Assembly (NCBI GenBank): GCA_036262515.1
Contig: DATAIT010000028.1
Coordinates: 1 to 60,922 of the forward strand
Direction: 5' to 3'
Source: Acidimicrobiales bacterium
GTDB taxonomy: Bacteria; Actinomycetota; Acidimicrobiia; Acidimicrobiales; GCA-2861595
DNA: 60,922 nucleotides
Both the position numbers and the translations under genes were made by a program. Shown here in pieces: positions 2,250 to 15,529 of this stretch (the first letter of the stretch is position 1; each line of letters opens with the position of its first letter). Below the pieces are notes generated by a model. The model ran no database searches. It had not been told where the DNA came from and saw only the letters and a list, made by a program, of their open reading frames with translations.

Positions 2250-3379
2250 CGTTGCTCGGGGGCGGCGTCGGCGTCGGCGGCGCCCCGCTCGCTGACGCCC
2301 GGGTAGCGCTCGCCGGTCAAGGCGAGGAAGACGGTGCCGAGTCCGGCCCGCACCACGTCGACCGAGCGGAGCCGGGGCAGCCGGTCACCCAGGGCGGGCA
2401 GCACTCGGGCCAGCGCCCTCCCGGGGTCGTCGTCGGTGATCCGGACCCGGCCGCCGTCGACCTCGACGCCGTCGAGGGCAGGCTGGCTGCTCATCTCGCC
2501 GTCGAAGCGGAGGTCGACGACAGCCGACCCATGGCGGGCGACGAGGGCGGGCACCTTGTCGCGGGCGACGAGGTGCCCGTGATGGAGGATGGCGACCGAC
2601 GCGCCCAGCTCCTCCACCTCGTCGAGCTGGTGGGTGGAGAAGCACACCGCCGTTCCCTCGGCGCTCAGCCGGCGCACCAGGTCGAGGACGGCCCCGCGCG
2701 CCGACGGGTCGATCCCGCTCGTCGACTCGTCGAGCAGCAGCACCGGTGGCCGGTGCACCACCGAGCAGGCGACATGGACCCGCCGCTGCTCGCCTCCCGA
2801 CAGCCGGCCGGCGGGGCGGCGAAGGAGCGGCGCCACGCCGAGATCGTCCGCCGCGTCCCGGGCGGACGACCGGGCCGCCGCGGCCGTCATGCCGGCCAGG
2901 CGAGCGGAGAAGACCAGGTTCTCCTCCACCGTCAGCGTGGGCGCGAGGCCGAGCCGCTGGGGCGCCAGTCCCAGGAGGCGGCGGGCGGCGGACGGGCGGG
3001 CGCGGGCGTCGACCCCCAGCACCGAGATGTCTCCGTCGTCGGGCTGCACCAGGCCGGCGACGGAGGACAGCAGCGTGGTCTTGCCAGCCCCGTTGGGGCC
3101 CACCAGGGCGAGCACCTCGCCGGCTTCGACCTCCAGGTCCACGCCGTCGAGGGCGAGGACGTCGCCGTAGGCCTTGGCCAGACGGCGGAGAACGAGAGCG
3201 GGAGCCGTTGGACCGGTGCCCGTGCGCCGTCGCCCGGCCGGGCTGCCGCCCTGCCGAGGCCAGTCGTCCCGGTGGCGACCCGTGTCGTTCGCCTGCGTAC
3301 CCCCCGTCTCGTCGGCATCCGTGTAGCCATGCGCGTTGGCTGCACCGAAAGCGCAAACAGTCGCCGATGGGAATCCCAT
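2246..3379 (-). CDS. ABC transporter ATP-binding protein, start uncertain
   Basis: This is the ATPase partner of the downstream permease. Walker A is GPNGAGKTT, the signature is LSGGEQRR, Walker B is PVLLLDES (Ser where Pro is usual after the Glu), and the switch His is in STHQLDE. The reading frame has no ATG, GTG or TTG between the ABC fold and a tRNA 3' fragment at 3381-3408. The nearest start is the ATG at 3379 beside that fragment, giving MGFPSATV; the open frame continues to a GTG at 3511. The ~70 residues before the fold (HGYTDADETGGTQAND and on) look non-conserved. The original 5' end may have been replaced when a mobile element recombined here, or the real start is non-canonical. Confidence 0.8.
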   Translation of the reverse strand: MGFPSATVCAFGAANAHGYTDADETGGTQANDTGRHRDDWPRQGGSPAGRRRTGTGPTAPALVLRRLAKAYGDVLALDGVDLEVEAGEVLALVGPNGAGKTTLLSSVAGLVQPDDGDISVLGVDARARPSAARRLLGLAPQRLGLAPTLTVEENLVFSARLAGMTAAAARSSARDAADDLGVAPLLRRPAGRLSGGEQRRVHVACSVVHRPPVLLLDESTSGIDPSARGAVLDLVRRLSAEGTAVCFSTHQLDEVEELGASVAILHHGHLVARDKVPALVARHGSAVVDLRFDGEMSSQPALDGVEVDGGRVRITDDDPGRALARVLPALGDRLPRLRSVDVVRAGLGTVFLALTGERYPGVSERGAADADAAPEQR

Positions 3380-3380
3380 T

Positions 3381-3408
3381 CTGGGTTCGAATCCCAGCCC
3401 CGGAGCCA
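3381..3408 (+). other. 3' fragment of a tRNA gene, probable attachment-site scar
   Basis: A perfect T-arm (CTGGG, TTCGAAT, CCCAG; 3381-3397) is followed by a 7-nt 3' acceptor strand CCCCGGA, a discriminator G and an encoded CCA at 3406-3408. No matching 5' acceptor (TCCGGGG) or D-arm occurs in the preceding 100 bases, so this is only a 3' half. A hairpin ATGGG-AAT-CCCAT just before it could be a long variable arm. Discriminator G suits Ser, Asn or Gln; the isotype cannot be fixed. Such fragments are typical attR remnants where an integrase used the tRNA 3' end. The element would then lie to the left, with the intact tRNA beyond the window. Confidence 0.6.
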
Positions 3409-3606
3409 GCGAAGAAGAGCCCGTGACCTGAGGGTTCTCGCCTGAGGAGGTCGGTACAACGGCCTCGAGTGGCGCCTCGTTTCCCCCGATTTCCCCCCAG
3501 CCGATGAGCACGTCAGGGCCGCCGCCGCTCCTTGGGAAAAGTACATTCTTCGGCGGACGCGATGCAACCAGCGCGCGCTAGCGTGCCGTTCGTCTGATCC
3601 ACGCCC

Positions 3607-3624
3607 AGGAGGGAGAAGGACCTG
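3607..3624 (+). promoter_or_regulatory. Shine-Dalgarno AGGAGG preceding a CTG start
   Basis: AGGAGG at 3607-3612 lies nine bases before the in-frame CTG at 3622. The frame is closed by TGA at 3595-3597, and no ATG, GTG or TTG in frame exists between that stop and a GTG at 3760. The site therefore points to initiation at CTG for the encapsulin gene. Confidence 0.6.
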
Positions 3625-5058
3625 AGCGACCTGCCTTCGGGAGCCGAGCAGCCGCAGAGCGTCAGCACCGACGCAGCGCGCAACCTGGCCACGACGACCA
3701 AGACACGGGCGCAGTGGGCGGCGCTCACCCCACGGTGGCTGCTGCACCTGCTGCCGTGGGTGCGGGTGGACGGTGGTACCTACCGCGTCAACCGGGTGCG
3801 CCTTCTGAACCCGGACGAGCGCAAGATCCGGGTCACGACGGTCGGGGGACAGCCCTTCGTCCCGGTGACCGAGCTCCAGCAGCTCTCGCTCTTCGCGGGC
3901 CTCGAGCTCGACGCGGTGCAGGCGATCTCCGACGCGCTCCAGGTGGAGCGCCACGACACCGGCACGGTGCTCATGACGGAGGGCGAGGCGGGCGACAAGC
4001 TCTACCTGCTCGCCGAGGGCACGGTGGAGGTGTCGATCATCGGCTCCCGGGGTCAGACGCTTCGAGTGAACACGTTGAGCGGCGGCGAGATCTTCGGCGA
4101 GGGAGCTTTGCTCACGGACACGCCGCGTACGGCCACGGTCACTGTTCGTTCACCCAGCACCGTCCTGTCCCTGTCTCGGGCTCAGTTCGCGGACCTGTTG
4201 ACTGCCCATCCCGACGTGCGATCGGCGATGGAAACGATGGTCGAGGGGCGCCGGCAGCAGCGCGACGAGCTCGACGAGTACGGCGAGCACAAGATCGAGG
4301 TTGCCGGCGGGCACCACGGCGAGCCCGTGTTGCCGGAGACGTTCGTGGACTATGACGACGAGCCCCGGGAGTACCCGCTGAGTGTCGTGCAGACGATCGT
4401 GCGCGTGCACACGCGTGTCAGCGATGTCTACAGCAACCCGATCGACCAGCTGGAAGAGCAGCTCCGCCTGAGCATCGAGGGCATCCGCGAGCGCCAGGAA
4501 TACGAGCTCATAAACAACCCAGAGTTCGGCTTGCTCCACGCCGCCGCGCCGTCCATGCGCACCCCGAGCCGCACGGGAGCGCCGACGCCCGACGACATGG
4601 ACGACCTGCTCGCTCTCGTGTGGAAGCGCCCGGCGTTCTTCCTCGCCCACCCGATGGCCATCGCCGCATTCGGTCGGGAGTGCACCCGTCGGGGCGTGCC
4701 GCCGCCCACGACGACGATTTTTGGCTCCCCGTTCCTCACGTGGCGCGGCGTCCCCATCGTCCCGTGCGACAAGCTGCTCGTTGGCGGCAAGGCCCGGGTG
4801 GGGTCGCGGGCGGGCACGACCAACATCCTGTTGGTGCGAGTCGGCGAGCGCGAGCAGGGTGTGGTCGGCCTCCACACCTCCGGTCTGCCAGGTGAGCCCG
4901 AGGGCCTCCCCGGGCTGTCGGTGCGGCTGATGGGCGTGAACCGCCGGGCGGTGGCGTCGTACCTGCTGACGCTCTACTTCTCGGCTGCGGTGCTGATCGA
5001 GGACGCCATCGCCGTGCTCGAAGGTGTCGAGGTCGGCCGGTACCACGAGTATCCGTGA
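3622..5058 (+). CDS. family 2B encapsulin nanocompartment shell protein with cNMP-binding domain
   Basis: This is a HK97-fold shell protein of a proteinaceous nanocompartment, family 2B. The N-terminus (STDAARNLATTTKT, then TPRWLLHLLPWVRVDGGTYRVNR) is the family 2 signature. A cyclic-nucleotide-binding domain follows at about residues 80-185, with the phosphate-binding cassette FGEGALLTDTPRTATV including its Arg. After this come the shell domain (WKRPAFFLAHPMAIAAFGREC, PFLTWRGVPIVPCDKLLV) and the C-terminal YFSAAVLIEDAIAVLEGVEVGRYHEYP. The family signature continues upstream of the first ATG/GTG (GTG 3760), so the start must be earlier; the only candidate is CTG at 3622 with AGGAGG before it (478 aa). 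It overlaps the cargo gene as GTGA. Ligand binding is inferred from the intact cassette. Confidence 0.9.
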   Translation: MSDLPSGAEQPQSVSTDAARNLATTTKTRAQWAALTPRWLLHLLPWVRVDGGTYRVNRVRLLNPDERKIRVTTVGGQPFVPVTELQQLSLFAGLELDAVQAISDALQVERHDTGTVLMTEGEAGDKLYLLAEGTVEVSIIGSRGQTLRVNTLSGGEIFGEGALLTDTPRTATVTVRSPSTVLSLSRAQFADLLTAHPDVRSAMETMVEGRRQQRDELDEYGEHKIEVAGGHHGEPVLPETFVDYDDEPREYPLSVVQTIVRVHTRVSDVYSNPIDQLEEQLRLSIEGIRERQEYELINNPEFGLLHAAAPSMRTPSRTGAPTPDDMDDLLALVWKRPAFFLAHPMAIAAFGRECTRRGVPPPTTTIFGSPFLTWRGVPIVPCDKLLVGGKARVGSRAGTTNILLVRVGEREQGVVGLHTSGLPGEPEGLPGLSVRLMGVNRRAVASYLLTLYFSAAVLIEDAIAVLEGVEVGRYHEYP

Positions 5059-6923
5059 CGGTGCTCCCGTCGCCGAACGGGCCGCACGTCGACCCGACTG
5101 ACGAGACGTTCGTCGCCCGGCTGGCCAACGACATCTTCCGGGAAGGACCGTCGGTCGCGGGCACGGCGGCGACCCATGCCGAGGACCTCGACGCCGTACC
5201 CGGGCGCGCCGCCAACGCGGCGACGGACGAGGCCGCCACCCTCGCGGCCAGCGCCTATCGGGTAGATCCCACGATGACTAACGCCATCCCGATGGGAGGG
5301 ATACCGCGCGCCGCCCCGGGCGTCCTCGGTACCGGCGCCTCGGGCCCTTCGAGCTTCATGCTCCGCTCGGCGCCTCTGGGCGACGCCTTGCCGGCGGGGA
5401 CGGTGGAGCCCTGGAGCCACATGGCGCAGGCGTGGCAGCCGCTCGCACCCCGCGGGTCGTCGACGGCGGTGCCCTACACCGGTGGGCCCATGACGTCGGA
5501 CCCGCCCAGCGCCGATGCGCTGCGAGGGTTCGTGAGCACCCTCCGCCCCGAGACGCGCTCGTTGGACGCCCCTCTCCCCGTGCAGGACGACACCGCGCGC
5601 AACCCCGGCGACGCCGCCTTCTACTTCCTGCCGCGATCCGGAGGGGCCGCCCCGCAGCGCCGGCTCGCGACGCGGTCTCCGGGCGCGGGGTATGACGCCG
5701 GCGAGGTGCGGCGTGACTTCCCCGTCCTCCAGCAGCGCGTCCACGGCAAGCGGCTCGTGTGGCTCGACAACGCGGCGACGACCCAGAAGCCGCAGTGCGT
5801 GATCGACGAGATCGCCCGTTTCTACGAGCACGACAACTCCAATGTCCACCGCGGCGCCCACGAACTGGCGGCGCGTGCCACCGACGCCTACGAGGGGTCG
5901 CGTGCCAAGGTGGCGACGCTGCTCGGAGCCAGGTCGACCGACGAGGTCATCTTCGTGCGGGGGACGACCGAAGCGATCAACCTGGTCGCCCAGTCCTACG
6001 GCCGCAGCGTGGTCGGGGCAGGCGACGAGATCGTGCTCACGAGCCTGGAGCACCACTCCAACATCGTCCCCTGGCAGCTCCTGGCCAAGGAGCGGGGTGC
6101 GTCGTTGAAGCCGGTGCAGATCAGCGATCGAGGCGACGTGATGCTCGACCATTACGCCTCGCTGCTCGGTCCCCGCACTCGCATCGTCGCCCTGACGCAG
6201 GTCTCGAACGCGCTGGGCACGGTCCTGCCGGTTGAGGCCATGGCCGCCATGGCCAAGGCTGCCGGCGCAGCAGTGGTCGTCGACGGCGCCCAAGGAGTGC
6301 CCCACATGCCCGTGGATGTCGGCGAGCTGGGTGCCGATTTCTATGCCTTTTCGGGCCACAAGCTATACGGCCCCACGGGCGTGGGCGTGCTGTGGGGCCG
6401 TCGGGAGCTGCTCGAGCAGATGCCGCCGTGGCAGGGCGGCGGCCAGATGATCAAGCACGTCGACTTCGAGTCATCCACGTGGAACGAGCTCCCGTACAAG
6501 TTCGAAGCCGGTACTGGCGCCATCGGTCCCGCTGTCGGGCTCGGGCGGGCGATCGACTACCTGACGATGTTGGGGCTCCCGCACATCGCCGCTCACGAGC
6601 ATGTGCTCCTCGCCCACGGCACCGAGGCGCTTGCAGCCATCCCGGGCCTACGCCTGATCGGCACGTCCCCGCACAAGGCCGCGGTGCTGTCGTTCGTGCT
6701 CGAGGGCACCGAACCAGAAGACGTGGCGAAGCTCCTCGATCAGGAAGGCATCGCCGTCCGTGCCGGCCACCACTGCGCGCAACCGGCGCTGCGCCGATTC
6801 GGGCTGGAGGCCACGGTGCGGCCGTCGCTCGGGCTCTACAACACCCACGACGACATCGAGGTGCTGGCCGCCGCTGTCCGGAAGGCCGCCCACGCGCTCC
6901 GCCGCAGTCGTCATACGTCCTAG
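5055..6923 (+). CDS. SufS-type cysteine desulfurase, encapsulin cargo
   Basis: This is a PLP enzyme that takes sulfur from cysteine, giving alanine and a persulfide. The catalytic part begins near residue 214 (EVRRDFPVLQQRVHGK). It shows WLDNAATTQKP, the PLP-binding GTTEAINLVAQS, SLEHHSNIVPW, the Schiff-base Lys in FSGHKLYGPTG, and the active-site Cys in RAGHHCAQPALRRFG. SufS proteins are about 410 aa; this one is 622 because of a ~213-residue, Pro/Ala/Gly-rich, probably disordered N-terminal extension. In characterised family 2 encapsulins such an extension on the desulfurase loads it into the shell. The GTG start overlaps the shell gene stop (GTGA), fixing co-expression. Internal segments such as DPTMTNAIPMGGIPRA and SSFMLRSAPLGDALP may be shell-binding motifs, which is inference. 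Confidence 0.92.
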   Translation: MTVLPSPNGPHVDPTDETFVARLANDIFREGPSVAGTAATHAEDLDAVPGRAANAATDEAATLAASAYRVDPTMTNAIPMGGIPRAAPGVLGTGASGPSSFMLRSAPLGDALPAGTVEPWSHMAQAWQPLAPRGSSTAVPYTGGPMTSDPPSADALRGFVSTLRPETRSLDAPLPVQDDTARNPGDAAFYFLPRSGGAAPQRRLATRSPGAGYDAGEVRRDFPVLQQRVHGKRLVWLDNAATTQKPQCVIDEIARFYEHDNSNVHRGAHELAARATDAYEGSRAKVATLLGARSTDEVIFVRGTTEAINLVAQSYGRSVVGAGDEIVLTSLEHHSNIVPWQLLAKERGASLKPVQISDRGDVMLDHYASLLGPRTRIVALTQVSNALGTVLPVEAMAAMAKAAGAAVVVDGAQGVPHMPVDVGELGADFYAFSGHKLYGPTGVGVLWGRRELLEQMPPWQGGGQMIKHVDFESSTWNELPYKFEAGTGAIGPAVGLGRAIDYLTMLGLPHIAAHEHVLLAHGTEALAAIPGLRLIGTSPHKAAVLSFVLEGTEPEDVAKLLDQEGIAVRAGHHCAQPALRRFGLEATVRPSLGLYNTHDDIEVLAAAVRKAAHALRRSRHTS

Positions 6924-6980
6924 AATCTGGGAGCAGCACGCTGGTACCCGGCGGCGTCTGGGGAGGGGACGGGGGGGTCC

Positions 6981-8174
6981 ATGGCAGAAGGTGTGACCCA
7001 GGGAGGGCGGCGGCCCGCTGCTATGAGACGCCGCCGCCTCCTGTGGCGGGAGGAGATGGTCACGTGCCTCCTCGGGACGTGGCTGTTGGGCGGCCTCCAC
7101 CTGGACGGATGGGCCCACCGCAACACCGATCTCCACGACTCGCTGACCACGCCGTGGCACGCGGTGTTGTATTCGGGTTGGGCGGCGCTGGCGTCGTGGA
7201 TCGTCTGGCTGATCATGCGCGAGCGCAAGGAAGGGGCACGGGGGCTGGCCGCTGTGCCTCGGGGCTACGCGATGGGCGTGGCGGGCATGATCTGCTTCGC
7301 CGTGGGAGGCGCGGGCGACCAGGTATGGCATCTCTCCCTCGGAATCGAACAGGACATCGAAGCGTTCCTCAGCCCAACCCACTGGTTCCTCGCCGTCGGC
7401 ATGTTCCTGATGGTCAGCTGTTCCTTCCGCGCCGCCTGGACGTCCTTCGACACCGACACCCCGACCCTGCGTGCATTCGCGCCGACGTTGTGGTCGATCA
7501 CGTTGACCACGGCGATGGTGGGCTTCGCCTACAACTACCTGAGCCCCTTCGTCATCGACAACCCGACGATCAAGGACGGGGACCTGTTCGCCCTGTTCCG
7601 GCCGGAGGTTCCCCCAGCCACCGCCTTCGGATTCGCCGAACGCCTGCGCATGCAGGGAGTCGGCGACGAGATCGTCTGGACCGTCCTGCTCATGGGAATC
7701 TCGCTCATGGTGCTCCGCCGGTGGCGGCCGCCGTTCGGCAGCTTCGTCGTCCTGTTCGGCGCAACCACGGCGGCCGTCAGCGGTGTCTGGGACTTCGATC
7801 ACGGATGGACCATCATCGCCGGTCTCATCGGGGGGCTTGCTGCCGACGTGCTCGTCCAACGACTCGATCCCCGGCCGGAACGTCTTCTCCAATACCGGGT
7901 GTTCTCCGCCGTCGTGCCGGCCGTGACCTGGGCCGCGTACTTCGTTACCGTCGCCATCGCCTATGGCATGGGGTGGTCCACGCCCATGTGGGCCGGCTCG
8001 ATCACCTTCGCCGTGCCCATAGGCCTGCTCATCAGCGCGCTCATGGTGCCCATGTCGATCCCCGTTCGCCCGGTCCACGCCGGTTCCGTTGAGCAGGTCG
8101 GGGACCTGCCGCAGCGAGATGCGCGTTCCCGCGGCGTCGAGACCACTCGCGATCTCGAAGGGATGACCACATGA
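6981..8174 (+). CDS. polytopic membrane protein of unknown function in encapsulin locus
   Basis: This is a 397-aa protein with about ten hydrophobic membrane segments, from TCLLGTWLLGGLHLDGWAH near the N-terminus to GSITFAVPIGLLISALMV before a hydrophilic tail. I do not recognise a named transporter family. Membrane-embedded His and Trp residues are frequent (LHLDGWAHRN, GDQVWHLSLG, SPTHWFLAVG, WDFDHGWTII), suggesting metal, heme or quinone contact, though that is only a suggestion. It begins 57 bases after the desulfurase gene, behind a strikingly G-rich leader (about 6957-6980). Its stop overlaps the methyltransferase start as ATGA (8171-8174). The arrangement implies a single transcript with the nanocompartment genes. 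Confidence 0.78.
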   Translation: MAEGVTQGGRRPAAMRRRRLLWREEMVTCLLGTWLLGGLHLDGWAHRNTDLHDSLTTPWHAVLYSGWAALASWIVWLIMRERKEGARGLAAVPRGYAMGVAGMICFAVGGAGDQVWHLSLGIEQDIEAFLSPTHWFLAVGMFLMVSCSFRAAWTSFDTDTPTLRAFAPTLWSITLTTAMVGFAYNYLSPFVIDNPTIKDGDLFALFRPEVPPATAFGFAERLRMQGVGDEIVWTVLLMGISLMVLRRWRPPFGSFVVLFGATTAAVSGVWDFDHGWTIIAGLIGGLAADVLVQRLDPRPERLLQYRVFSAVVPAVTWAAYFVTVAIAYGMGWSTPMWAGSITFAVPIGLLISALMVPMSIPVRPVHAGSVEQVGDLPQRDARSRGVETTRDLEGMTT

Positions 8175-8959
8175 GCTCGCTCACGAGGGAGGAGATAGAG
8201 GCGCTCGACCCGTACAGCTTCCTCGCCGTACTGGGGAAGAAGGTCGTGCGTCCGGGCGGCCATCTCTCGACGGAGCAGCTGTTCGAGCTGGCCGAGATCA
8301 AGCCTGACCATCACGTCCTGGAGATCGGGTGCGGCGTCGGCGCCACGGCGATCGAGCTGGTTCAGCGCTTCGAGTGCCAGGTGACGGCCATCGATCACTC
8401 CCCGCTGATGCTCGAAAAGGCCAGGGGGCAGACCAGCCGCGCCGGCCTCAGCGACCGCATTCGCTATGAGGAAGCCGACATGTGTGGCCTCCCCTACGCC
8501 GATGACGTCTTCGACGTGGTGATCATCGAGGCGGTGACGATGTTCTGCCCGCGGCACAGCGCCCTCCGTGAGTGCAAGCGCGTTCTGAAGCCGGGTGGGC
8601 AACTGCTCGATCAGGAGTTCGCGTGGCGCAAGGCGCCGGACGAGCGCGCCCTCGAGATCCTCCGCCAGCCGACGATGTGCCCCGGCATCGATTTCGACGA
8701 CGTGCTGGAGTGGAAGGTGCTGTTCAAGGACGTCGGGCTGACGGACGTCGAGGCCGTGAGCGGGCCATTCGCCCTGATGCACCCGCGGGTGTTCGTCAAG
8801 GACGAAGGATGGGCCAATTCCATGCGCATCCTCGGCACGGCGCTCTCCCGACCGGCGTACTTCAAGAAGGCCGTGTGGCTGATGCGCAACATCTTCAAGA
8901 TCATGCCGTCGCTCGGCTACGTCGTGATGAGCGCGCGTAAGCCCGCCTTGAAGAGTTGA
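8171..8959 (+). CDS. class I SAM-dependent methyltransferase
   Basis: This is a 262-aa Rossmann-fold methyltransferase. Motif I is VLEIGCGVGATAIELVQRF, the acidic residue after strand 2 is in VTAIDHSPLMLEKAR, motif II/III is EEADMCGLPYADDVFDVVII, and post-motif III is CKRVLKPGGQLLDQEF. The architecture resembles small-molecule or lipid (sterol/terpene-like, UbiE-like) methyltransferases. The C-terminal ~100 residues, with hydrophobic helices (AYFKKAVWLMRNIFKIMPSLGYVVM), may bind a lipophilic substrate. It is translationally coupled to the membrane protein (ATGA), so it may act at the membrane. Terpene-type family 2B encapsulin loci also carry a methyltransferase, but nothing here marks it as the GPP enzyme. 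The substrate is unknown. Confidence 0.85.
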   Translation: MSSLTREEIEALDPYSFLAVLGKKVVRPGGHLSTEQLFELAEIKPDHHVLEIGCGVGATAIELVQRFECQVTAIDHSPLMLEKARGQTSRAGLSDRIRYEEADMCGLPYADDVFDVVIIEAVTMFCPRHSALRECKRVLKPGGQLLDQEFAWRKAPDERALEILRQPTMCPGIDFDDVLEWKVLFKDVGLTDVEAVSGPFALMHPRVFVKDEGWANSMRILGTALSRPAYFKKAVWLMRNIFKIMPSLGYVVMSARKPALKS

Positions 8960-9015
8960 ACTGTGCACATCCGCGATCATCAAGGCGTCCGTTGCCGTCG
9001 TGAAGGTTCGAGATC

Positions 9016-9025
9016 TTGACGTCAA
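9016..9025. promoter_or_regulatory. perfect 10-bp palindrome TTGACGTCAA
   Basis: TTGACGTCAA lies about 98 bases before the start of the cyclase-like gene. A second inverted repeat, GTACGC/GCGTAC with a five-base spacer, follows at 9051-9067. Either could be an operator or part of the promoter. No clear -10 at 16-18 spacing is visible, so function is only a suggestion. Confidence 0.25.
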
Positions 9026-9122
9026 CCCATATTCTTCCGGAACGCCCGGAGTACGCTGCGCGCGTACGGAGCCTTCCGACCACCCGCCACCACGTCGCTC
9101 TGCCGACAACAGGAGGTCACGC

Positions 9123-9773
9123 GTGAGCCAACAGTCAGAAGCCAACATGGGCGGTTCTCGTGCGACGAGAGGCGTCCTTCTCCTCGCCGACATCTCGGGT
9201 TACACAGGCTTTCTGCAGGCTGTCGCCAATGCCCATGGTGCAGAAATGGCAACCATGACAGAACTGCCGGCGGCGTACCCCCTGATCACCAGCCTGCTCG
9301 ACGGAATCGTCTCCGAGCTCGTTCCGCCCTTCCATCTGTCCAAGCTGGAGGGCGACGCTGTGTTCGCGTACGCAGCGGACGACTCGTTCGACCCGCGCGG
9401 CGAGTCGGTCGTCGGGACGCTCAGGGGCTGCTACGCCGACTTTCGCGACCGCCGGGACGAGGCCGTGAAGCTGATGTTCTGCGACTGCACGGCGTGCGAG
9501 GGTCTGAACACGCTGGAGCTGAAGTTCGTGCTGCATTGGGGAAACTACGTCGTGCAGTCGATCGCCGGCCACCAAGAGCTCTTGGGTCCCGACGTGACCA
9601 TGGCGCACTTGCTGCTCAAGAACAACGTCTCGGGCGTGGTTGGCTGCTCGGCGTACGCGATGCTCACGCAGGCGGCGGCTCAGCAGCTCGACGTTTCCGT
9701 CGACGTGTCGACGGCGCACACCGAGAGCTTCCCGCACTACCCGCCGATCGACACCCACATCTTCACGATGTAG
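9123..9773 (+). CDS. class III nucleotidyl cyclase-like (DUF2652-type) protein
   Basis: This is a single-domain, 216-aa soluble protein related to class III adenylate/guanylate cyclases (DUF2652-like). The first metal-binding Asp is in LLLADISGYTGFLQ and the second in KLEGDAVFAYA; LKFVLHWGNYVV matches the strand IGIHtG of true cyclases. In the usual DVNxAARL segment the sequence is DVTMAHLLLKN, so the Asn and Arg that stabilise the transition state appear replaced. It may therefore be a divergent cyclase, a binder or a regulator. The GTG start at 9123 follows AGGAGGT (9111-9117) by five bases. It lies immediately after the operon whose shell protein has a cyclic-nucleotide domain, which makes a functional link attractive but unproven. 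Confidence 0.7.
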   Translation: MSQQSEANMGGSRATRGVLLLADISGYTGFLQAVANAHGAEMATMTELPAAYPLITSLLDGIVSELVPPFHLSKLEGDAVFAYAADDSFDPRGESVVGTLRGCYADFRDRRDEAVKLMFCDCTACEGLNTLELKFVLHWGNYVVQSIAGHQELLGPDVTMAHLLLKNNVSGVVGCSAYAMLTQAAAQQLDVSVDVSTAHTESFPHYPPIDTHIFTM

Positions 9774-10180
9774 GCGTTGAGGGTTCCGTTGGAAGTCGAG
9801 CCGACGTGGACCCTCCGACATCCGGCCGTAGCGGGCGATCGCTGGTGACCGAGCCGACGACTCCAAGGTCGACGCCGCCGGCGCGGCCAGGTGAGTCTCG
9901 CCGACTGCGTAGCCGCTGAGGCCGCCTGCGTTGGTGGCGACCTGCTCGTCACCGCACACTTGCCATCGGGCTCGCCCTGGTGCCGAACGTGCGAGGGAAG
10001 CCGGCGGCGCGAGTCAGGCGCCGGGCCGTCAGAGACTGAACTTGCCCGCATCCTCGGGGAAATCGCAAGCGCGGACCCTGTAACCAAGCGTTTCGACGCG
10101 CGCCATATGTCCGATATCCGGACGGTATTAAGTCCGGGCAACAGCTGCACCAATGTGCAGAATGAGGAAAGGCGAGTCAT
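9774..10180. other. 407-bp intergenic region, no gene supported
   Basis: Open frames here (9891-10256 plus, 9737-10180 minus) have erratic composition and no recognisable domain. The right end carries a cluster of inverted half-sites described separately and the leader of the copper-module gene. The left ~300 bases show nothing I can interpret. Confidence 0.5.
10109..10137 (+). promoter_or_regulatory. clustered inverted repeats upstream of the copper module
   Basis: Three half-sites occur in a row: GTCCG (10109-10113), CCGGAC (10118-10123) and GTCCGG (10132-10137). The last two form a perfect 6-bp inverted repeat around the AT-rich spacer GGTATTAA, which contains a possible -10 (TATTAA). The cluster ends 43 bases before the first gene of the module. 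It is a good candidate for an operator, for example of a copper-responsive repressor, but no regulator gene is adjacent. Confidence 0.45.
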
Positions 10181-12877
10181 ATGGCAAAGATCTTTCGCGG
10201 CGTCGGTCTTCCGCGAGACGTGCGAACCAGAGCCACCTCACTCGCCTGTCTCATGATGTTGCTGGCCGGCCTCACAGGTGTTGCTTTTCTTTCGCCAGCG
10301 CGCGCCGTGACCGTCTCGATCTCGATCAAGAACCTCAGCTTCGTTCCGGCCAGTGTCTCGATAGCGCCGGGGACAACCGTCGTGTGGAGCAACGACGAGA
10401 CGGACGGGACCGTGCACAGCGTCACCAGCGACGACGGCCTGTTCTCCCATGACCTGAACGCAGGTGACACGTTCTCGTGGACCTTCGACAAGGCGGGGAC
10501 GTTCGGCTACCACTGTCGCTTCCACCCGTTCATGACCGGTGTCGTCACGGTGACCGACGAAGCAAGCCCCCCGTCGACCGAACCGCCGACGACGGGCCCG
10601 CCGACGACCTCCCCGCCGACCACCGGCACCACTCCCTCCACGGCGCCGCCGACCACCGCCCCCGGGTCGTCGACCACCACTGGCCCGCCGGGGGCCTTCG
10701 TCGCCGGCATCGGGCCGATCGCCGTCCATTTCAACCTCACCGACAAGAACGACGCCTGGTTCGACACCGGCACCTCGCTCTTCGGCACCAAGTCGTTGGC
10801 GGTGGCCGAGATGCCGCGGGCCGGGCTCGGCACCCTCGGGGTTGCACCGTCGGACGTCACCAGCCTCGACGTCGCGAAGGCGCTCGCCGACCTGGTGAAT
10901 GGGTTGCCGGACGTCCCGCTCCTCCAGATCCCCGGCGTGCCGCCGGCGCTGAGGCCACTCGGTACCGTCGCCGAGGCCCTGAGCTCCCTGTCACCGCAGC
11001 TCCAAGGACTCGGCCTCGGCGGGCTGGCGCCGGAGGTCGACGAGATCCAGGCCCAGATCAAGACCCTGCTGCTCGATCCCGTGGCCGCCGCCGCCGGCCT
11101 GAACACCTCCCCGGTCGGGGTCGACCTGGTGAAGAACCTCTCGGACCTGGCCAGCCAGCTCCAGGACGCGAGCATGCCCGTCAACGTGAACTTCCACATC
11201 GGCCCCGAGTACACCCAGGCCAACCACATGGTCAGCAGCCTGATCTGGCCGTCGGGGGCGACGGGGTTCCCGTACGACCAGCAGGGCGCGACGATCGGCG
11301 ACCTCCCCGTCCAGCTCACCAAGCCCGGCCTGTACGCCTTCCAGTGCAAGATCCACCCGTACATGCTCGGCGCCGTGGTGGTCGACGACCCGCTCACCCC
11401 CGGCCTCGACTTCGGGAAGTCGCTGACCGTCAACACCCGCAACCTCGAGTCGGTCCCCTCCCAATCGGACCTGATCTTCAAGCTGGTCCACACCTTCTTC
11501 AAGATCACCGTGCCCACCAACTGGGACCATTTCAGCGACACGCAGCCGACGATATGGAATCCCCAGTATCCGATCGCGCCGATCCTGACTGCCGATTCGG
11601 CCGGCGACCCGCAACTCATTCCCGACCTGAACAACTTCTTCCACCAGCTGTTCCACGAACCCGTCCAGCAGCCGGCCCTGACGAAGCCGTCTACACCCGG
11701 CGTCGGATCCTTGTGGGTCGACACAGAGTTCGAGACCACGGCGGGCAAGTCGAAACCGGGCACGGCTACCAGGATCGACACGTCGAACTGGAGTATTGCG
11801 CGCAAGGTGGCGCTGCCGGAGGTCGACATGAACAACCCCCACAACATGTGGACCGACGCCGCCGGCAAGCTGATCTACCAGACGGAGTGGTGGAACAACC
11901 GCCTCGACGTGTGGGACGCGGCGACCGGCAAGCTCGTCCGGACGCAACCCACCGGTCCCGACCCGTCCCATGTCATGACGGAGGTCGGCAGTGACAACGT
12001 CGACGTGGTGATCAATGGCGGAAACCAGGTGATGGTGTTCGCGCCGGGCGCCACCAAGCTGCTGAAGACGATCTCCATCTCGGCGTCGGGCACGAAGCCG
12101 GCCCATCCCCACGCACCGTGGATGAGCACCGACGGCAAGACCATGGTGACCCCGAACGTCAACTTGGACACCGCGTCGGTCATCAACATGGAGACCGGCA
12201 CCCATGTGGACGAGCCGACAGGCCACTGGCCCATCGCCCAGGGCATGACGCCGGACAACAGCAAGTTCTACACGGCCAACTTCCTGGACGGCACCGAGTC
12301 GTGCATCTCGATCGGCGCTCCCGCCTGCAGCGACAACGGGCGCAAGGTCCACAGCAAGATCATCGACCTCCAGCCCGGCTACGACCCGGTGTCGGGCGCC
12401 ACGGGCGCCCCCGGACTGGGCGGCCTCCCGATCCAGAACCCCGTCAGCCCCGACGGCCGCACCCTGTTGGTGGCGAACACGTTCACCAACAACGTGGCCG
12501 TCATCGACACCGCGACCGACACCCTCGTGAAGTTTCTTCCCTGCGACGCCGGGTGCCACGGCATCAACTTCGGCTTCAAGAAGGGCGGGGGCTACTACGG
12601 CTACGTCTCGTCGAAGTTCGCCAACACGATGGAGGTCATCGACGTGAGCCAGGGCCCGCAGGCGGCGAGCGTCGTCGGCAAGTTCACGGTGGACGCGGGG
12701 CCCGGCACGGCGACCGACGACAAGATCGTGGGGTACTCCGGCTTCGGCGGCATGGGCATCGTCACGACGCCCCTCGCCTACCCGGGGTGGTCGGCCAGCC
12801 AGAAGGCGGCCGGCGCGCCGGGCACCGAGTTGCTGATCCCCTGCCAGATCGCCCTCCCGGGCAAGAACGCCTGCTGA
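10181..12877 (+). CDS. secreted protein with two cupredoxin domains and a C-terminal beta-propeller
   Basis: This is an 898-aa exported protein. A signal peptide (CLMMLLAGLTGVAFLSPARA) is followed by a type 1 copper cupredoxin domain (ligands in TVHSVTS and YHCRFHPFM), a Pro/Thr linker (about residues 130-165), and a helical region. A second cupredoxin-like domain (ANHMVSS, FQCKIHPYM) comes next, then a ~350-residue YVTN/NHL-type propeller (NNPHNMWTDAAGKLIYQTEW, SPDGRTLLVANTFTNNVAVID). Both His/Cys/His/Met copper sets look complete. The propeller may dock a partner or hold another metal; electron transfer to the multicopper oxidase encoded next is inferred. The ATG follows GAGGAAAGG by eight bases, and the stop overlaps the next start (TGATG). 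Confidence 0.82.
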   Translation: MAKIFRGVGLPRDVRTRATSLACLMMLLAGLTGVAFLSPARAVTVSISIKNLSFVPASVSIAPGTTVVWSNDETDGTVHSVTSDDGLFSHDLNAGDTFSWTFDKAGTFGYHCRFHPFMTGVVTVTDEASPPSTEPPTTGPPTTSPPTTGTTPSTAPPTTAPGSSTTTGPPGAFVAGIGPIAVHFNLTDKNDAWFDTGTSLFGTKSLAVAEMPRAGLGTLGVAPSDVTSLDVAKALADLVNGLPDVPLLQIPGVPPALRPLGTVAEALSSLSPQLQGLGLGGLAPEVDEIQAQIKTLLLDPVAAAAGLNTSPVGVDLVKNLSDLASQLQDASMPVNVNFHIGPEYTQANHMVSSLIWPSGATGFPYDQQGATIGDLPVQLTKPGLYAFQCKIHPYMLGAVVVDDPLTPGLDFGKSLTVNTRNLESVPSQSDLIFKLVHTFFKITVPTNWDHFSDTQPTIWNPQYPIAPILTADSAGDPQLIPDLNNFFHQLFHEPVQQPALTKPSTPGVGSLWVDTEFETTAGKSKPGTATRIDTSNWSIARKVALPEVDMNNPHNMWTDAAGKLIYQTEWWNNRLDVWDAATGKLVRTQPTGPDPSHVMTEVGSDNVDVVINGGNQVMVFAPGATKLLKTISISASGTKPAHPHAPWMSTDGKTMVTPNVNLDTASVINMETGTHVDEPTGHWPIAQGMTPDNSKFYTANFLDGTESCISIGAPACSDNGRKVHSKIIDLQPGYDPVSGATGAPGLGGLPIQNPVSPDGRTLLVANTFTNNVAVIDTATDTLVKFLPCDAGCHGINFGFKKGGGYYGYVSSKFANTMEVIDVSQGPQAASVVGKFTVDAGPGTATDDKIVGYSGFGGMGIVTTPLAYPGWSASQKAAGAPGTELLIPCQIALPGKNAC

Positions 12878-14151
12878 TGGGCCGCGAATCCAGAGCGGCG
12901 ATGCGCACCGTCGTGACGTGCATCGCGGCCAGCATCGTCACCCTGGTGGGCGCTGGCATCACCGGGCTGGGGATCATCCCGGCCTCGAACGCCGAAGCGT
13001 CGCCCGTGCCCGTTTCCATCCGAGGCGTGTCGTACCAGCCCCAGGACCTCACCGTCGCCGAGGGCACCACCGTCACCTGGCGCAACGACGAGTCCGACCG
13101 GACGATGCACAGCGTCTCCGGTGGCCCGCTGGCGTCGGCGGACCTGGCGCCCGGGCAGGTGTTCTCCTTCACCTTCACGACGGCCGGCAGCTTCACCTAC
13201 CACTGCCGCTTCCACACCTACATGGAGGGTCACGTCACCGTGACCGGCCAGGCCGGCACCACGCCGCCGCCGCCGTCGACCACCGCGCCCCCGGGGCCGG
13301 GGCCGGCGCCGGGCGGGGCCGGCACCGAGTACGTGGGCGCGGCGCTCGGGGACGGCACCTACCTCGCCAACTACGACCTGGTCGGAGGGGTGAAGGTGTT
13401 CCACCTGGTCATGGCCCCGGTTAGCTGGGAGGTCACCAAGGGCCGGGTGGTCCAGGGGTACGCCTTCAACGGCGTGATCCCCGGCCCCGTGATCCGCGCC
13501 AACGCCGGCGATCGGCTGCGGTTCGTCGTGGAGAACCGCTTGCCACCAGGACAGATGACCGGCGTCCACTGGCACGGGATGGTGCTGCCCAACGACCAGG
13601 ACGGCGTGCCCGGCGTCACCCAGGACCCGATCCAGCCGGGCCAGACCTACACCTACGAGTGGACGGCGGTCACGACGGGGACCCACTGGTACCACGCCCA
13701 CATGGGTGGTGCCCAGATCGGCAAGGGCCTCTACGGCCCGCTCCAGATCCTGCCCCGGGCCGGCGGCGACATCACCGCCGCCCACGACTACTCGCTGATG
13801 TTCGGCGACACCAACCTCGGCTTCGTCCTCAACGGCCGGTCGTTCCCCGAGACCGTGCCGCTGCACGCCAAGGTCGGCGAGCGGGTGCACATCCGCCTCT
13901 ACGACACCGGCGACGACGAGCACGCCATCCACCTGCACGGCACGGCGTTTCAGGTCGTGGCCCAGGACGGGCAGCGCCTGCCGCAGCCCTACCTGGCCGA
14001 CACCCTGTCCATCGCCCCGGGCCAGACCTGGGACATCGTCGCCGTCATGACCGTGCCCGGGAGATGGGCGCTCCACTGCCACAAGTTCATCCATTCCGAG
14101 AACGACATGGGCATGATGGGCATGACCACGATCCTCGAGGTCACGAACTGA
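12877..14151 (+). CDS. multicopper oxidase with N-terminal cupredoxin domain
   Basis: This is a 424-aa exported copper oxidase. After a signal peptide (VTLVGAGITGLGIIPASNAEA) there is a plastocyanin-like domain with type 1 ligands in TMHSVSGG and YHCRFHTYM, then a Pro-rich linker. The multicopper core has all four ligand motifs: VHWHGMV, HWYHAHMGG, DEHAIHLHGTAF and HCHKFIHSENDMGMM. The last holds the Cys-His bridge and an axial Met. Laccase-like enzymes of this type oxidise phenols or metals such as Cu(I), or can reduce nitrite in related forms; the substrate is not readable here. ATG at 12877 overlaps the upstream stop by one base; an internal ATG at 12901 is an alternative. The next gene encodes copper uptake or resistance functions. 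Confidence 0.88.
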   Translation: MGRESRAAMRTVVTCIAASIVTLVGAGITGLGIIPASNAEASPVPVSIRGVSYQPQDLTVAEGTTVTWRNDESDRTMHSVSGGPLASADLAPGQVFSFTFTTAGSFTYHCRFHTYMEGHVTVTGQAGTTPPPPSTTAPPGPGPAPGGAGTEYVGAALGDGTYLANYDLVGGVKVFHLVMAPVSWEVTKGRVVQGYAFNGVIPGPVIRANAGDRLRFVVENRLPPGQMTGVHWHGMVLPNDQDGVPGVTQDPIQPGQTYTYEWTAVTTGTHWYHAHMGGAQIGKGLYGPLQILPRAGGDITAAHDYSLMFGDTNLGFVLNGRSFPETVPLHAKVGERVHIRLYDTGDDEHAIHLHGTAFQVVAQDGQRLPQPYLADTLSIAPGQTWDIVAVMTVPGRWALHCHKFIHSENDMGMMGMTTILEVTN

Positions 14152-14215
14152 CCGGCCCGGGACGGCGATCCGTCTTCTACGCGCTGGTGGGACAGCCCGC
14201 GGGAATGGCCGATCA

Positions 14216-15529
14216 GTGACCGCCGGGCGACCCGCCCGGCTCCTGTGCGGGTTGGGTCTCGGGCTCGCCGCGCTGACCGCCGCTGCCCCGGCTGGCGGCC
14301 ATGCCGCGGTGGTGTCGGCATCGCCACCGGCCGGCGCCTCGCTCCGCACGGCGCCGGGCCGGGTCGTCCTCGTCTTCGAGGAGCGGCCTGACCCGGTCCT
14401 GTCGGCCATCGATGTCCTCGACAGCGCCGGGGTGGGCCGCGCTGTCGGGGCGCTGACCAGCGCGCCGGGCCGGCCGGACGCGCTGGCCCGTCCGGTGCCG
14501 GCTCTGCCCGACGGCGTCTACACCGTCGCCTGGCGGGCGGTGGCGGCCGCTGACGGCCACCTGGAGACCGGCTCCTACCGTTTCGGGGTCCGGGTGCCGG
14601 TCACCGGCACCCACGGGGTGGCCGAGAAGGCGGCGGGCCCGTCCTGGGCCGGGGCCGGGGCGCGGTGGGCCTACGAGGTGGGCGTCATCGGCCTCGTCGG
14701 CCTGGCCTTCGTCGCCCTGTCGGTGTTCGAAGCCCCACCGGAGCGGGTCATCCGGTGGGGCCTGTGGTTGTCCTGGGGCGCTGCGGTCGTCGGCGCGCTG
14801 GGCATCGCCGCCGCCCAGGCGTCGGTCGACGGGGTCGGCCCCGGGCGCCTGCTGTCGTCCTCCGCGGGTGTGGCTGCGGTGGCGAGGGCCGCGCCGCTCC
14901 TCGAGGCCGCCCTGGCCGTCGGCGCCGTCCTTGTGTGGCGGGGCAGGTGGCGTCGCGCTGCGCTGGCCGGGGTCGGGGTCTACGCCGCCCTCTCCATGTT
15001 CGCCGACGTCCACGTCGGCCACGCGGCGGCGGCCTCGTCGTGGGCATGGCTGCACGAGGCGGTCCTCGGGACCCACTTCCTCGCCGTCGGCGTGTGGATC
15101 GGCGGCCTGGTCGCCGTGCTGGCCTGCCTTCCGGGTACCGACCCGGCGCAGCGGGCGGCCGGGCTGCTGCGGTACTCCGGCGCGGCCGTGGTGGCGGTGT
15201 TCGCCGTGGCCTTCACCGGCACCGTCGAGGCCGTCGCCGAGGTGCCGTCCGGGCACGCGCTGCTGTCCACCGGCTTCGGGCGCGTCGTTCTGGCCAAAGT
15301 GGCATTCATCGTCGTGCTGGGCGGTCTCGGGGCGGTGAACCGCTACCGCAACGTTCCCCTGGTCCTCCGATCCGTGGCCCCCTTGCGCCGGGTGGCGGTC
15401 GCCGAGGTCGGGATCGCCGCCTGCGCCCTGGTGGCGGCGGCGGTCCTCCCCGGCTTCGACCCCGGCGGCCGCGCGCCGGCCGCCACCCCGGCACCGACGG
15501 CGCCCGTGGCGTCCGCCGCCGGGGAGTAG
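14216..15529 (+). CDS. CopC-CopD fusion, copper binding and transport protein
   Basis: This is a 437-aa protein joining a periplasmic CopC domain to a CopD membrane domain. The signal peptide ends at AGGHAAV, which leaves the N-terminal His that binds copper in CopC proteins. The CopC fold continues with SPPAGASLRTAPGRVVLVFEE and the second ligand region ADGHLETGSYRFGV. From about residue 145 there are some eight membrane helices with the CopD pattern (LHEAVLGTHFLAVGVWIGGLVAVLAC, VAFTGTVEAVAEV, TGFGRVVLAKVAFIVVL). CopCD takes copper across the membrane, often to supply or protect cuproenzymes. The GTG start follows the oxidase gene by 64 bases, so the three form a copper module. Confidence 0.85.
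   Translation: MTAGRPARLLCGLGLGLAALTAAAPAGGHAAVVSASPPAGASLRTAPGRVVLVFEERPDPVLSAIDVLDSAGVGRAVGALTSAPGRPDALARPVPALPDGVYTVAWRAVAAADGHLETGSYRFGVRVPVTGTHGVAEKAAGPSWAGAGARWAYEVGVIGLVGLAFVALSVFEAPPERVIRWGLWLSWGAAVVGALGIAAAQASVDGVGPGRLLSSSAGVAAVARAAPLLEAALAVGAVLVWRGRWRRAALAGVGVYAALSMFADVHVGHAAAASSWAWLHEAVLGTHFLAVGVWIGGLVAVLACLPGTDPAQRAAGLLRYSGAAVVAVFAVAFTGTVEAVAEVPSGHALLSTGFGRVVLAKVAFIVVLGGLGAVNRYRNVPLVLRSVAPLRRVAVAEVGIAACALVAAAVLPGFDPGGRAPAATPAPTAPVASAAGE

What the first reader, a model, noticed from the sequence alone, without database searches (positions are those of the whole stretch)
9123..9773. Cyclase-like protein next to a cyclic-nucleotide-binding shell, but with altered catalytic residues
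Both metal Asp motifs are present (ADISGYT, EGDAVFA), while the DVNxAAR segment reads DVTMAHLL. It could be an unusual cyclase that makes the shell's ligand, or a receptor or antagonist of it. Proximity to the cNMP-domain encapsulin makes it a strong functional candidate.
Basis: partly seen in the sequence, partly recalled or inferred. Interest (0 to 1): 0.62.

Follow-up and report, generated by a model that had tools for sequence, protein, structure and literature searches.

The report
Degenerate cyclase-like protein near nanocompartment shell
The gene encodes a protein with the fold of the enzymes that make cyclic AMP or GMP, but it has lost two residues those enzymes use for catalysis, and its position near a protein nanocompartment is repeated in no other genome examined, so it is probably not the enzyme that feeds that compartment.

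Summary
Window 9123-9773 (+) is a real gene (Pfam DUF2652, E 1.7e-25), and its predicted structure (pLDDT 92.5) is a class III nucleotide-cyclase domain (Z 19.1 to CyaC). Both metal aspartates and the base-selecting Lys are kept. The transition-state Asn and Arg are Thr and Leu. That state is shared by a well-supported clade of four proteins from Actinobacteriota and Chloroflexota; its sister branches have the complete Asn...Arg pair, so the loss is derived. The cyclase relationship of DUF2652 was published in 2016.

None of 24 other non-mycobacterial DUF2652 genomes has a Family 2 encapsulin, and none of 16 other 2B genomes has DUF2652. DUF2652 is modestly enriched near cNMP-binding-domain genes and near, or fused to, methyltransferases; in the window a methyltransferase is the adjacent upstream gene.

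Unexpectedly, this shell's cNMP domain keeps a canonical phosphate-binding cassette (FGEGALLTDTPRTATV), while 26 other 2B shells lack its arginine. The published failure of 2B shells to bind cyclic nucleotides may therefore not apply here. Best reading: a catalytically weak or dead cyclase homologue acting as a nucleotide sensor or regulator, partner unproven.

The parts
9123..9773 (+). DUF2652 gene, 216 aa, class III nucleotide-cyclase fold
   Evidence: Pfam E 1.7e-25; model pLDDT 92.5; Z 19.1 to CyaC
9112..9117 (+). AGGAGG ribosome-binding site for the GTG start at 9123
   Evidence: sequence
9186..9206 (+). ADISGYT, first metal-binding Asp (Asp23)
   Evidence: motif table, conservation
9342..9368 (+). 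KLEGDAVFA, base-selecting Lys74 and second metal-binding Asp78
   Evidence: motif table, conservation
9480..9497 (+). CDCTAC, the CxCxxC motif conserved in nearly all DUF2652 members
9585..9623 (+). GPDVTMAHLLLKN; Thr159 and Leu163 replace the transition-state Asn and Arg
8171..8959 (+). SAM-dependent class I methyltransferase, gene directly upstream of DUF2652
   Evidence: Pfam Methyltransf_11 E 3.5e-24
6981..8174 (+). membrane protein without family match, overlapping the methyltransferase start by 4 bases
5055..6923 (+). SufS-type cysteine desulfurase, encapsulin cargo type
   Evidence: NF041166 E 1.4e-218, below its cut-off (728 of 800 bits); TIGR01979 over cut-off
3760..5058 (+). family 2B encapsulin shell with inserted cNMP-binding domain
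   Evidence: NF041163 E 2e-153; PF19307 and PF00027
4093..4140 (+). canonical phosphate-binding cassette FGEGALLTDTPRTATV in the shell's cNMP domain

Best explanation
A soluble DUF2652 protein with the class III nucleotide-cyclase fold, in a small clade that kept the two metal aspartates and the base-selecting Lys but lost both transition-state residues (Asn->Thr, Arg->Leu). Shown: family, fold, motif states, clade and direction of change. Inferred: it forms the usual head-to-tail dimer, binds a metal-nucleotide triphosphate, and is weak or dead as a canonical adenylyl or guanylyl cyclase, so it acts mainly as a nucleotide-responsive sensor or regulatory partner, perhaps also through its CxCxxC metal or thiol site. 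Its nearest candidate partner here is the adjacent methyltransferase. The encapsulin gene pair upstream is probably a separate system that lies nearby in this lineage only.
For: Pfam DUF2652. Model pLDDT 92.5, pTM 0.88; all listed PDB matches are class III cyclases, CyaC at Foldseek E about 2e-9 and Z 19.1, rmsd 2.4 over 181 residues. Motif table. Clade of four at 99/97 support, with sisters that carry VN...R. Encapsulin link absent elsewhere. Methyltransferase within 1.5 kb or fused in 5 of 28 loci against 0.69 expected; fusion confirmed by Pfam.
Against: Some accepted class III cyclases lack the Asn, and Bacteroidetes DUF2652 members vary at the Arg position yet were predicted to be cyclases (PMC4886424), so inactivity is not certain. 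The metal Asp and Lys74 are kept, which is unusual for a purely dead domain. I found no assay of any DUF2652 member. The sensor role itself has no direct evidence.
Confidence: 0.5

Rival explanations
1. An active but atypical cyclase whose product (cAMP, cGMP or another cyclic nucleotide) acts on some target other than the shell, with other residues (e.g. the conserved His162 or Lys166) doing the work of the lost Asn and Arg.
For: Metal Asp and Lys kept; DUF2652 lies near cNMP-domain genes in 4 of 28 loci against 0.74 expected, P 0.006, plus a Crp/Fnr neighbour on a Rhodobacteraceae plasmid and mycobacterial cNMP neighbours in PMC4886424.
Against: Both transition-state residues lost in all four clade members while sister branches keep them; the cNMP-domain link is post hoc, and two of the four loci (L122, L125) carry the intact Asn...Arg pair rather than this clade's state.
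Confidence: 0.22
2. One reading: it makes, senses or antagonises the ligand of the encapsulin's cNMP domain and so gates the nanocompartment.
For: Same strand, about 4 kb apart; only two cNMP domains exist in this 3.41 Mb genome, so a chance distance this short has probability about 0.006; the shell's phosphate-binding cassette is canonical.
Against: Co-occurrence found in no other genome: 0 of 24 other non-mycobacterial DUF2652 genomes have a Family 2 shell and 0 of 16 other 2B genomes have DUF2652. Catalytic residues lost. Tested 2B shells bind no cyclic nucleotide (PMC12407261).
Confidence: 0.1
3. A decaying remnant without function, carried in a lineage-specific block of DNA.
For: Rare and patchy distribution, 1 of 298 genomes of the order; the L003 relative is interrupted by a stop and a frame change.
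Against: The window copy is an intact ORF with a good ribosome-binding site and a confident fold; metal sites and the CxCxxC motif are kept across homologues only 53-61% identical.
Confidence: 0.13

Closest known systems
DUF2652 (PF10851) nucleotide-cyclase-like proteins, Ramakrishnan et al. 2016 (PMC4886424)
   Same: Pfam membership; two metal Asp; Lys of the base-selecting pair and, by sequence alignment, a Glu at its second position as in their mycobacterial set; Asn replaced
   Different: Arg is also replaced (by Leu), whereas their actinobacterial and proteobacterial members keep it; the CxCxxC motif and methyltransferase fusions are not mentioned there
Class III adenylyl cyclase CyaC of Spirulina platensis (PDB 1WC1)
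   Same: Fold, Z 19.1 over 181 residues
   Different: CyaC is a known active cyclase; here the transition-state Asn and Arg are Thr and Leu; 17% identity
Family 2B encapsulin with cysteine desulfurase cargo (PMC8346489)
   Same: The nearby shell and cargo genes are of this known type
   Different: This shell's cNMP domain has the canonical phosphate-binding cassette, which 26 other 2B shells lack; a DUF2652 gene is not described as part of such operons in the papers read

Membership tests
DUF2652 (PF10851) | Score above the curated Pfam cut-off | tested here: met
   89.8 bits against 22.1
Class III nucleotide cyclase | Cyclase homology domain fold | tested here: met
   Model pLDDT 92.5; Foldseek E about 2e-9 and Z 19.1 to CyaC
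Class III nucleotide cyclase | Two metal-binding aspartates | tested here: met
   Asp23 and Asp78, in columns at least 90% conserved
Class III nucleotide cyclase | Base-selecting residue pair | tested here: inconclusive
   Lys74 present; second position Glu152 only by sequence alignment, not checked on a solved complex
Class III nucleotide cyclase | Transition-state Asn and Arg | tested here: not met
   Thr159 and Leu163 instead
Class III nucleotide cyclase | NTP cyclisation activity | not testable with these tools
   Needs purified protein
Component of a 2B encapsulin operon | Recurrent genomic association with 2B shells | tested here: not met
   0 of 24 other non-mycobacterial DUF2652 genomes have a Family 2 shell, positive controls found; 0 of 16 other 2B genomes have DUF2652
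Family 2B encapsulin (neighbouring shell) | HK97-type shell with inserted cNMP domain, over the NF041163 cut-off | tested here: met
   511.7 bits against 400; PF19307 and PF00027 present
cNMP-responsive shell | Intact phosphate-binding cassette | tested here: met
   FGEGALLTDTPRTATV, aligned with PKG and PKA sites
cNMP-responsive shell | Binding of a cyclic nucleotide | not testable with these tools
   Needs a binding assay

The most novel reading that the evidence does not exclude
The locus is a cyclic-nucleotide-gated sulfur nanocompartment: a 2B shell with a functional cNMP domain, a cysteine desulfurase cargo, and a dedicated divergent class III cyclase-like protein that makes or senses the shell's ligand.
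Probability: 0.07. Interest if true: 0.8.

Novelty: new variant of a known kind. Interest (0 to 1): 0.36.

Why it matters
The role of the cNMP domain in 2B encapsulins is an open question, because the shells tested so far bind no cyclic nucleotide. This window offers a shell whose binding cassette is intact, which makes the question directly testable whatever the cyclase-like gene does. The DUF2652 clade is a natural case of a cyclase domain that kept its metal sites but lost both transition-state residues, in a family for which I found no reported assay.

Tried and rejected
PDB sequence searches with the protein and with the family profile found nothing, so the tie to cyclases rests on the structure model and the 2016 paper. 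NCBIfam and PADLOC have no model for the protein. A scan for promoters and terminators in 3300-10400 found none, so operon borders are undecided. In five same-family genomes no DNA match covered 6.9-10.2 kb; only desulfurase, transporter and other short stretches matched, so the block is absent from those relatives. A Pycsar reading was considered because PADLOC models match the shell's cNMP domain, but they match only that domain and no Pycsar cyclase or effector was seen. The enrichment figures for cNMP-domain and methyltransferase neighbours were computed after seeing the loci and use small local profiles, so they are indicative only.

Full report
What was checked. The gene at 9123-9773 (+) exists as described, with a good ribosome-binding site and the quoted motifs. 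It is a single-domain DUF2652 protein (PF10851, E 1.7e-25) and the only DUF2652 copy in its 3.41 Mb genome.

Fold. A 32-row alignment of DUF2652 members from fetched loci gave an AlphaFold model with mean pLDDT 92.5 and pTM 0.88. [quoted passage not shown] Sequence alone does not reach any PDB entry. The relationship of DUF2652 to class III cyclases was already proposed in 2016 from profile comparison and modelling (PMC4886424).

Active site. In the family alignment the two metal aspartates (Asp23, Asp78) are nearly invariant, and the Lys of KxxGD is kept in this protein. Most DUF2652 members read DVI..HRLLKN: Asn replaced, Arg kept. Four members (L122, L125, L126, L127) read VN...R, the canonical pair. 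The window protein reads DVTMAHLLLKN, and the same T...L state occurs in its three closest relatives, L003 (Dehalococcoidia MAG, 61% in the best segment), L066 (56%) and L067 (53%). These four form a clade at 99/97 support, with L126 and then L125 as sisters. Both sisters are canonical, so the loss of Asn and Arg is derived, and it has been kept in lineages of two phyla. Limits: the L003 copy is interrupted by a stop and a frame change in the MAG, which may be decay or sequencing error; L067 is cut by a contig end, so its metal sites cannot be read; L066 has Glu in place of the Lys. From established class III enzymology, loss of the Arg strongly lowers activity; that step is inference here.

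The encapsulin link. The shell at 3760-5058 is a 2B encapsulin followed by a cysteine desulfurase, a known operon type (PMC8346489). In the order, DUF2652 occurs in 1 of 298 genomes and a 2B shell over the cut-off in 2 of 198. In a phylum sample of 396, DUF2652 occurs in 16 genomes and Family 2 shells in 19, of which 16 carry full-length 2B shells. The overlap is this genome plus three mycobacteria whose shells match only the part without the cNMP domain. Direct searches of the 24 other non-mycobacterial DUF2652 genomes (11 actinobacterial and the L003 genome; 12 Chloroflexota, where both positive controls rang) found no Family 2 shell. None of 16 other 2B genomes (15 in the phylum sample, one in the order) has DUF2652. 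On plasmids, DUF2652 is on two records and 2B shells are on others, without overlap. The adjacency is therefore unique to this genome in everything I could search.

Other associations. DUF2652 lies within 5 kb of a cNMP-domain gene in 4 of 28 loci against 0.74 expected, P 0.006. The window itself is one of the four. In L125 and L122 the DUF2652 gene is followed directly by a large HEAT-repeat protein ending in a cNMP domain. A Rhodobacteraceae plasmid has a Crp/Fnr gene next door, and PMC4886424 lists cNMP-domain neighbours in mycobacteria. DUF2652 also lies within 1.5 kb of, or fused to, a methyltransferase in 5 of 28 loci against 0.69 expected, P 0.0005, or 0.005 with the two same-genus fusions counted once; the fusion is confirmed by Pfam. 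Some members carry a C-terminal SRPBCC-type domain. These figures are after-the-fact and approximate. They fit a nucleotide-signalling role for the family and make the methyltransferase at least as good a candidate partner in the window as the shell.

The shell's cNMP domain. The window shell reads FGEGALLTDTPRTATV, with the Glu and Arg of the canonical phosphate-binding cassette, and its best-scoring solved relatives are mostly PKG and PKA regulatory domains. By alignment none of 24 other distinct actinobacterial 2B shells has the Arg, nor do two cysteine-desulfurase-type 2B shells on plasmids of Kitasatospora and Methylobacterium. The published finding that 2B cNMP domains bind no cyclic nucleotide, explained there by divergent binding residues (PMC12407261), therefore cannot simply be carried over to this shell. 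The genome has only two cNMP domains and one other class III cyclase, a receiver-cyclase fusion whose VN...R is intact, which could make a ligand.

Verdict. A real class III cyclase-fold protein of a known, uncharacterised family, in a derived clade lacking both transition-state residues; probably a weak or inactive cyclase used as a sensor or regulator. The encapsulin connection is not supported by distribution but cannot be excluded for this one genome. The shell's intact cassette is the more testable lead.

Noticed in passing
window 4093-4140: The shell's cNMP domain has a canonical phosphate-binding cassette (FGEGALLTDTPRTATV), unlike 26 other 2B encapsulin shells compared.
   Followed up: partly
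window 9480-9497 and the same columns in the other DUF2652 loci: CxCxxC motif conserved in nearly all DUF2652 members and not mentioned in the 2016 paper; possibly a metal or redox site.
   Followed up: partly
L064 9036-10280 and L065 9103-10323 (minus strand): In-frame fusion of DUF2652 with a class I methyltransferase domain in two genomes of one genus.
   Followed up: partly
L125 10769-13768 and L122 10343-13504: DUF2652 genes directly followed by large proteins with HEAT repeats and a C-terminal cNMP domain (MFS-like N-terminal part detected in L125).
   Followed up: partly
window 6981-8174: Membrane protein with no Pfam or NCBIfam match, overlapping the methyltransferase start; no relative in any fetched locus.
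   Followed up: no
window 10181-15529: Copper-type cluster downstream: cupredoxin domain with beta-propeller (Pfam), then a multicopper-oxidase-like and a CopC/CopD-like protein (last two judged by eye).
   Followed up: no
window 4270-5058: The shell's HK97 part matches family 2A shells at about 60% identity, whereas full-length 2B shells match the whole protein at 39-49%.
   Followed up: no
L066 5211-6386: Cupin domain fused to a class III cyclase domain, about 3.3 kb from a close DUF2652 homologue.
   Followed up: no
L003 9970-10607: The closest DUF2652 relative is interrupted by a stop and a frame change between its first metal-Asp motif and the rest.
   Followed up: partly
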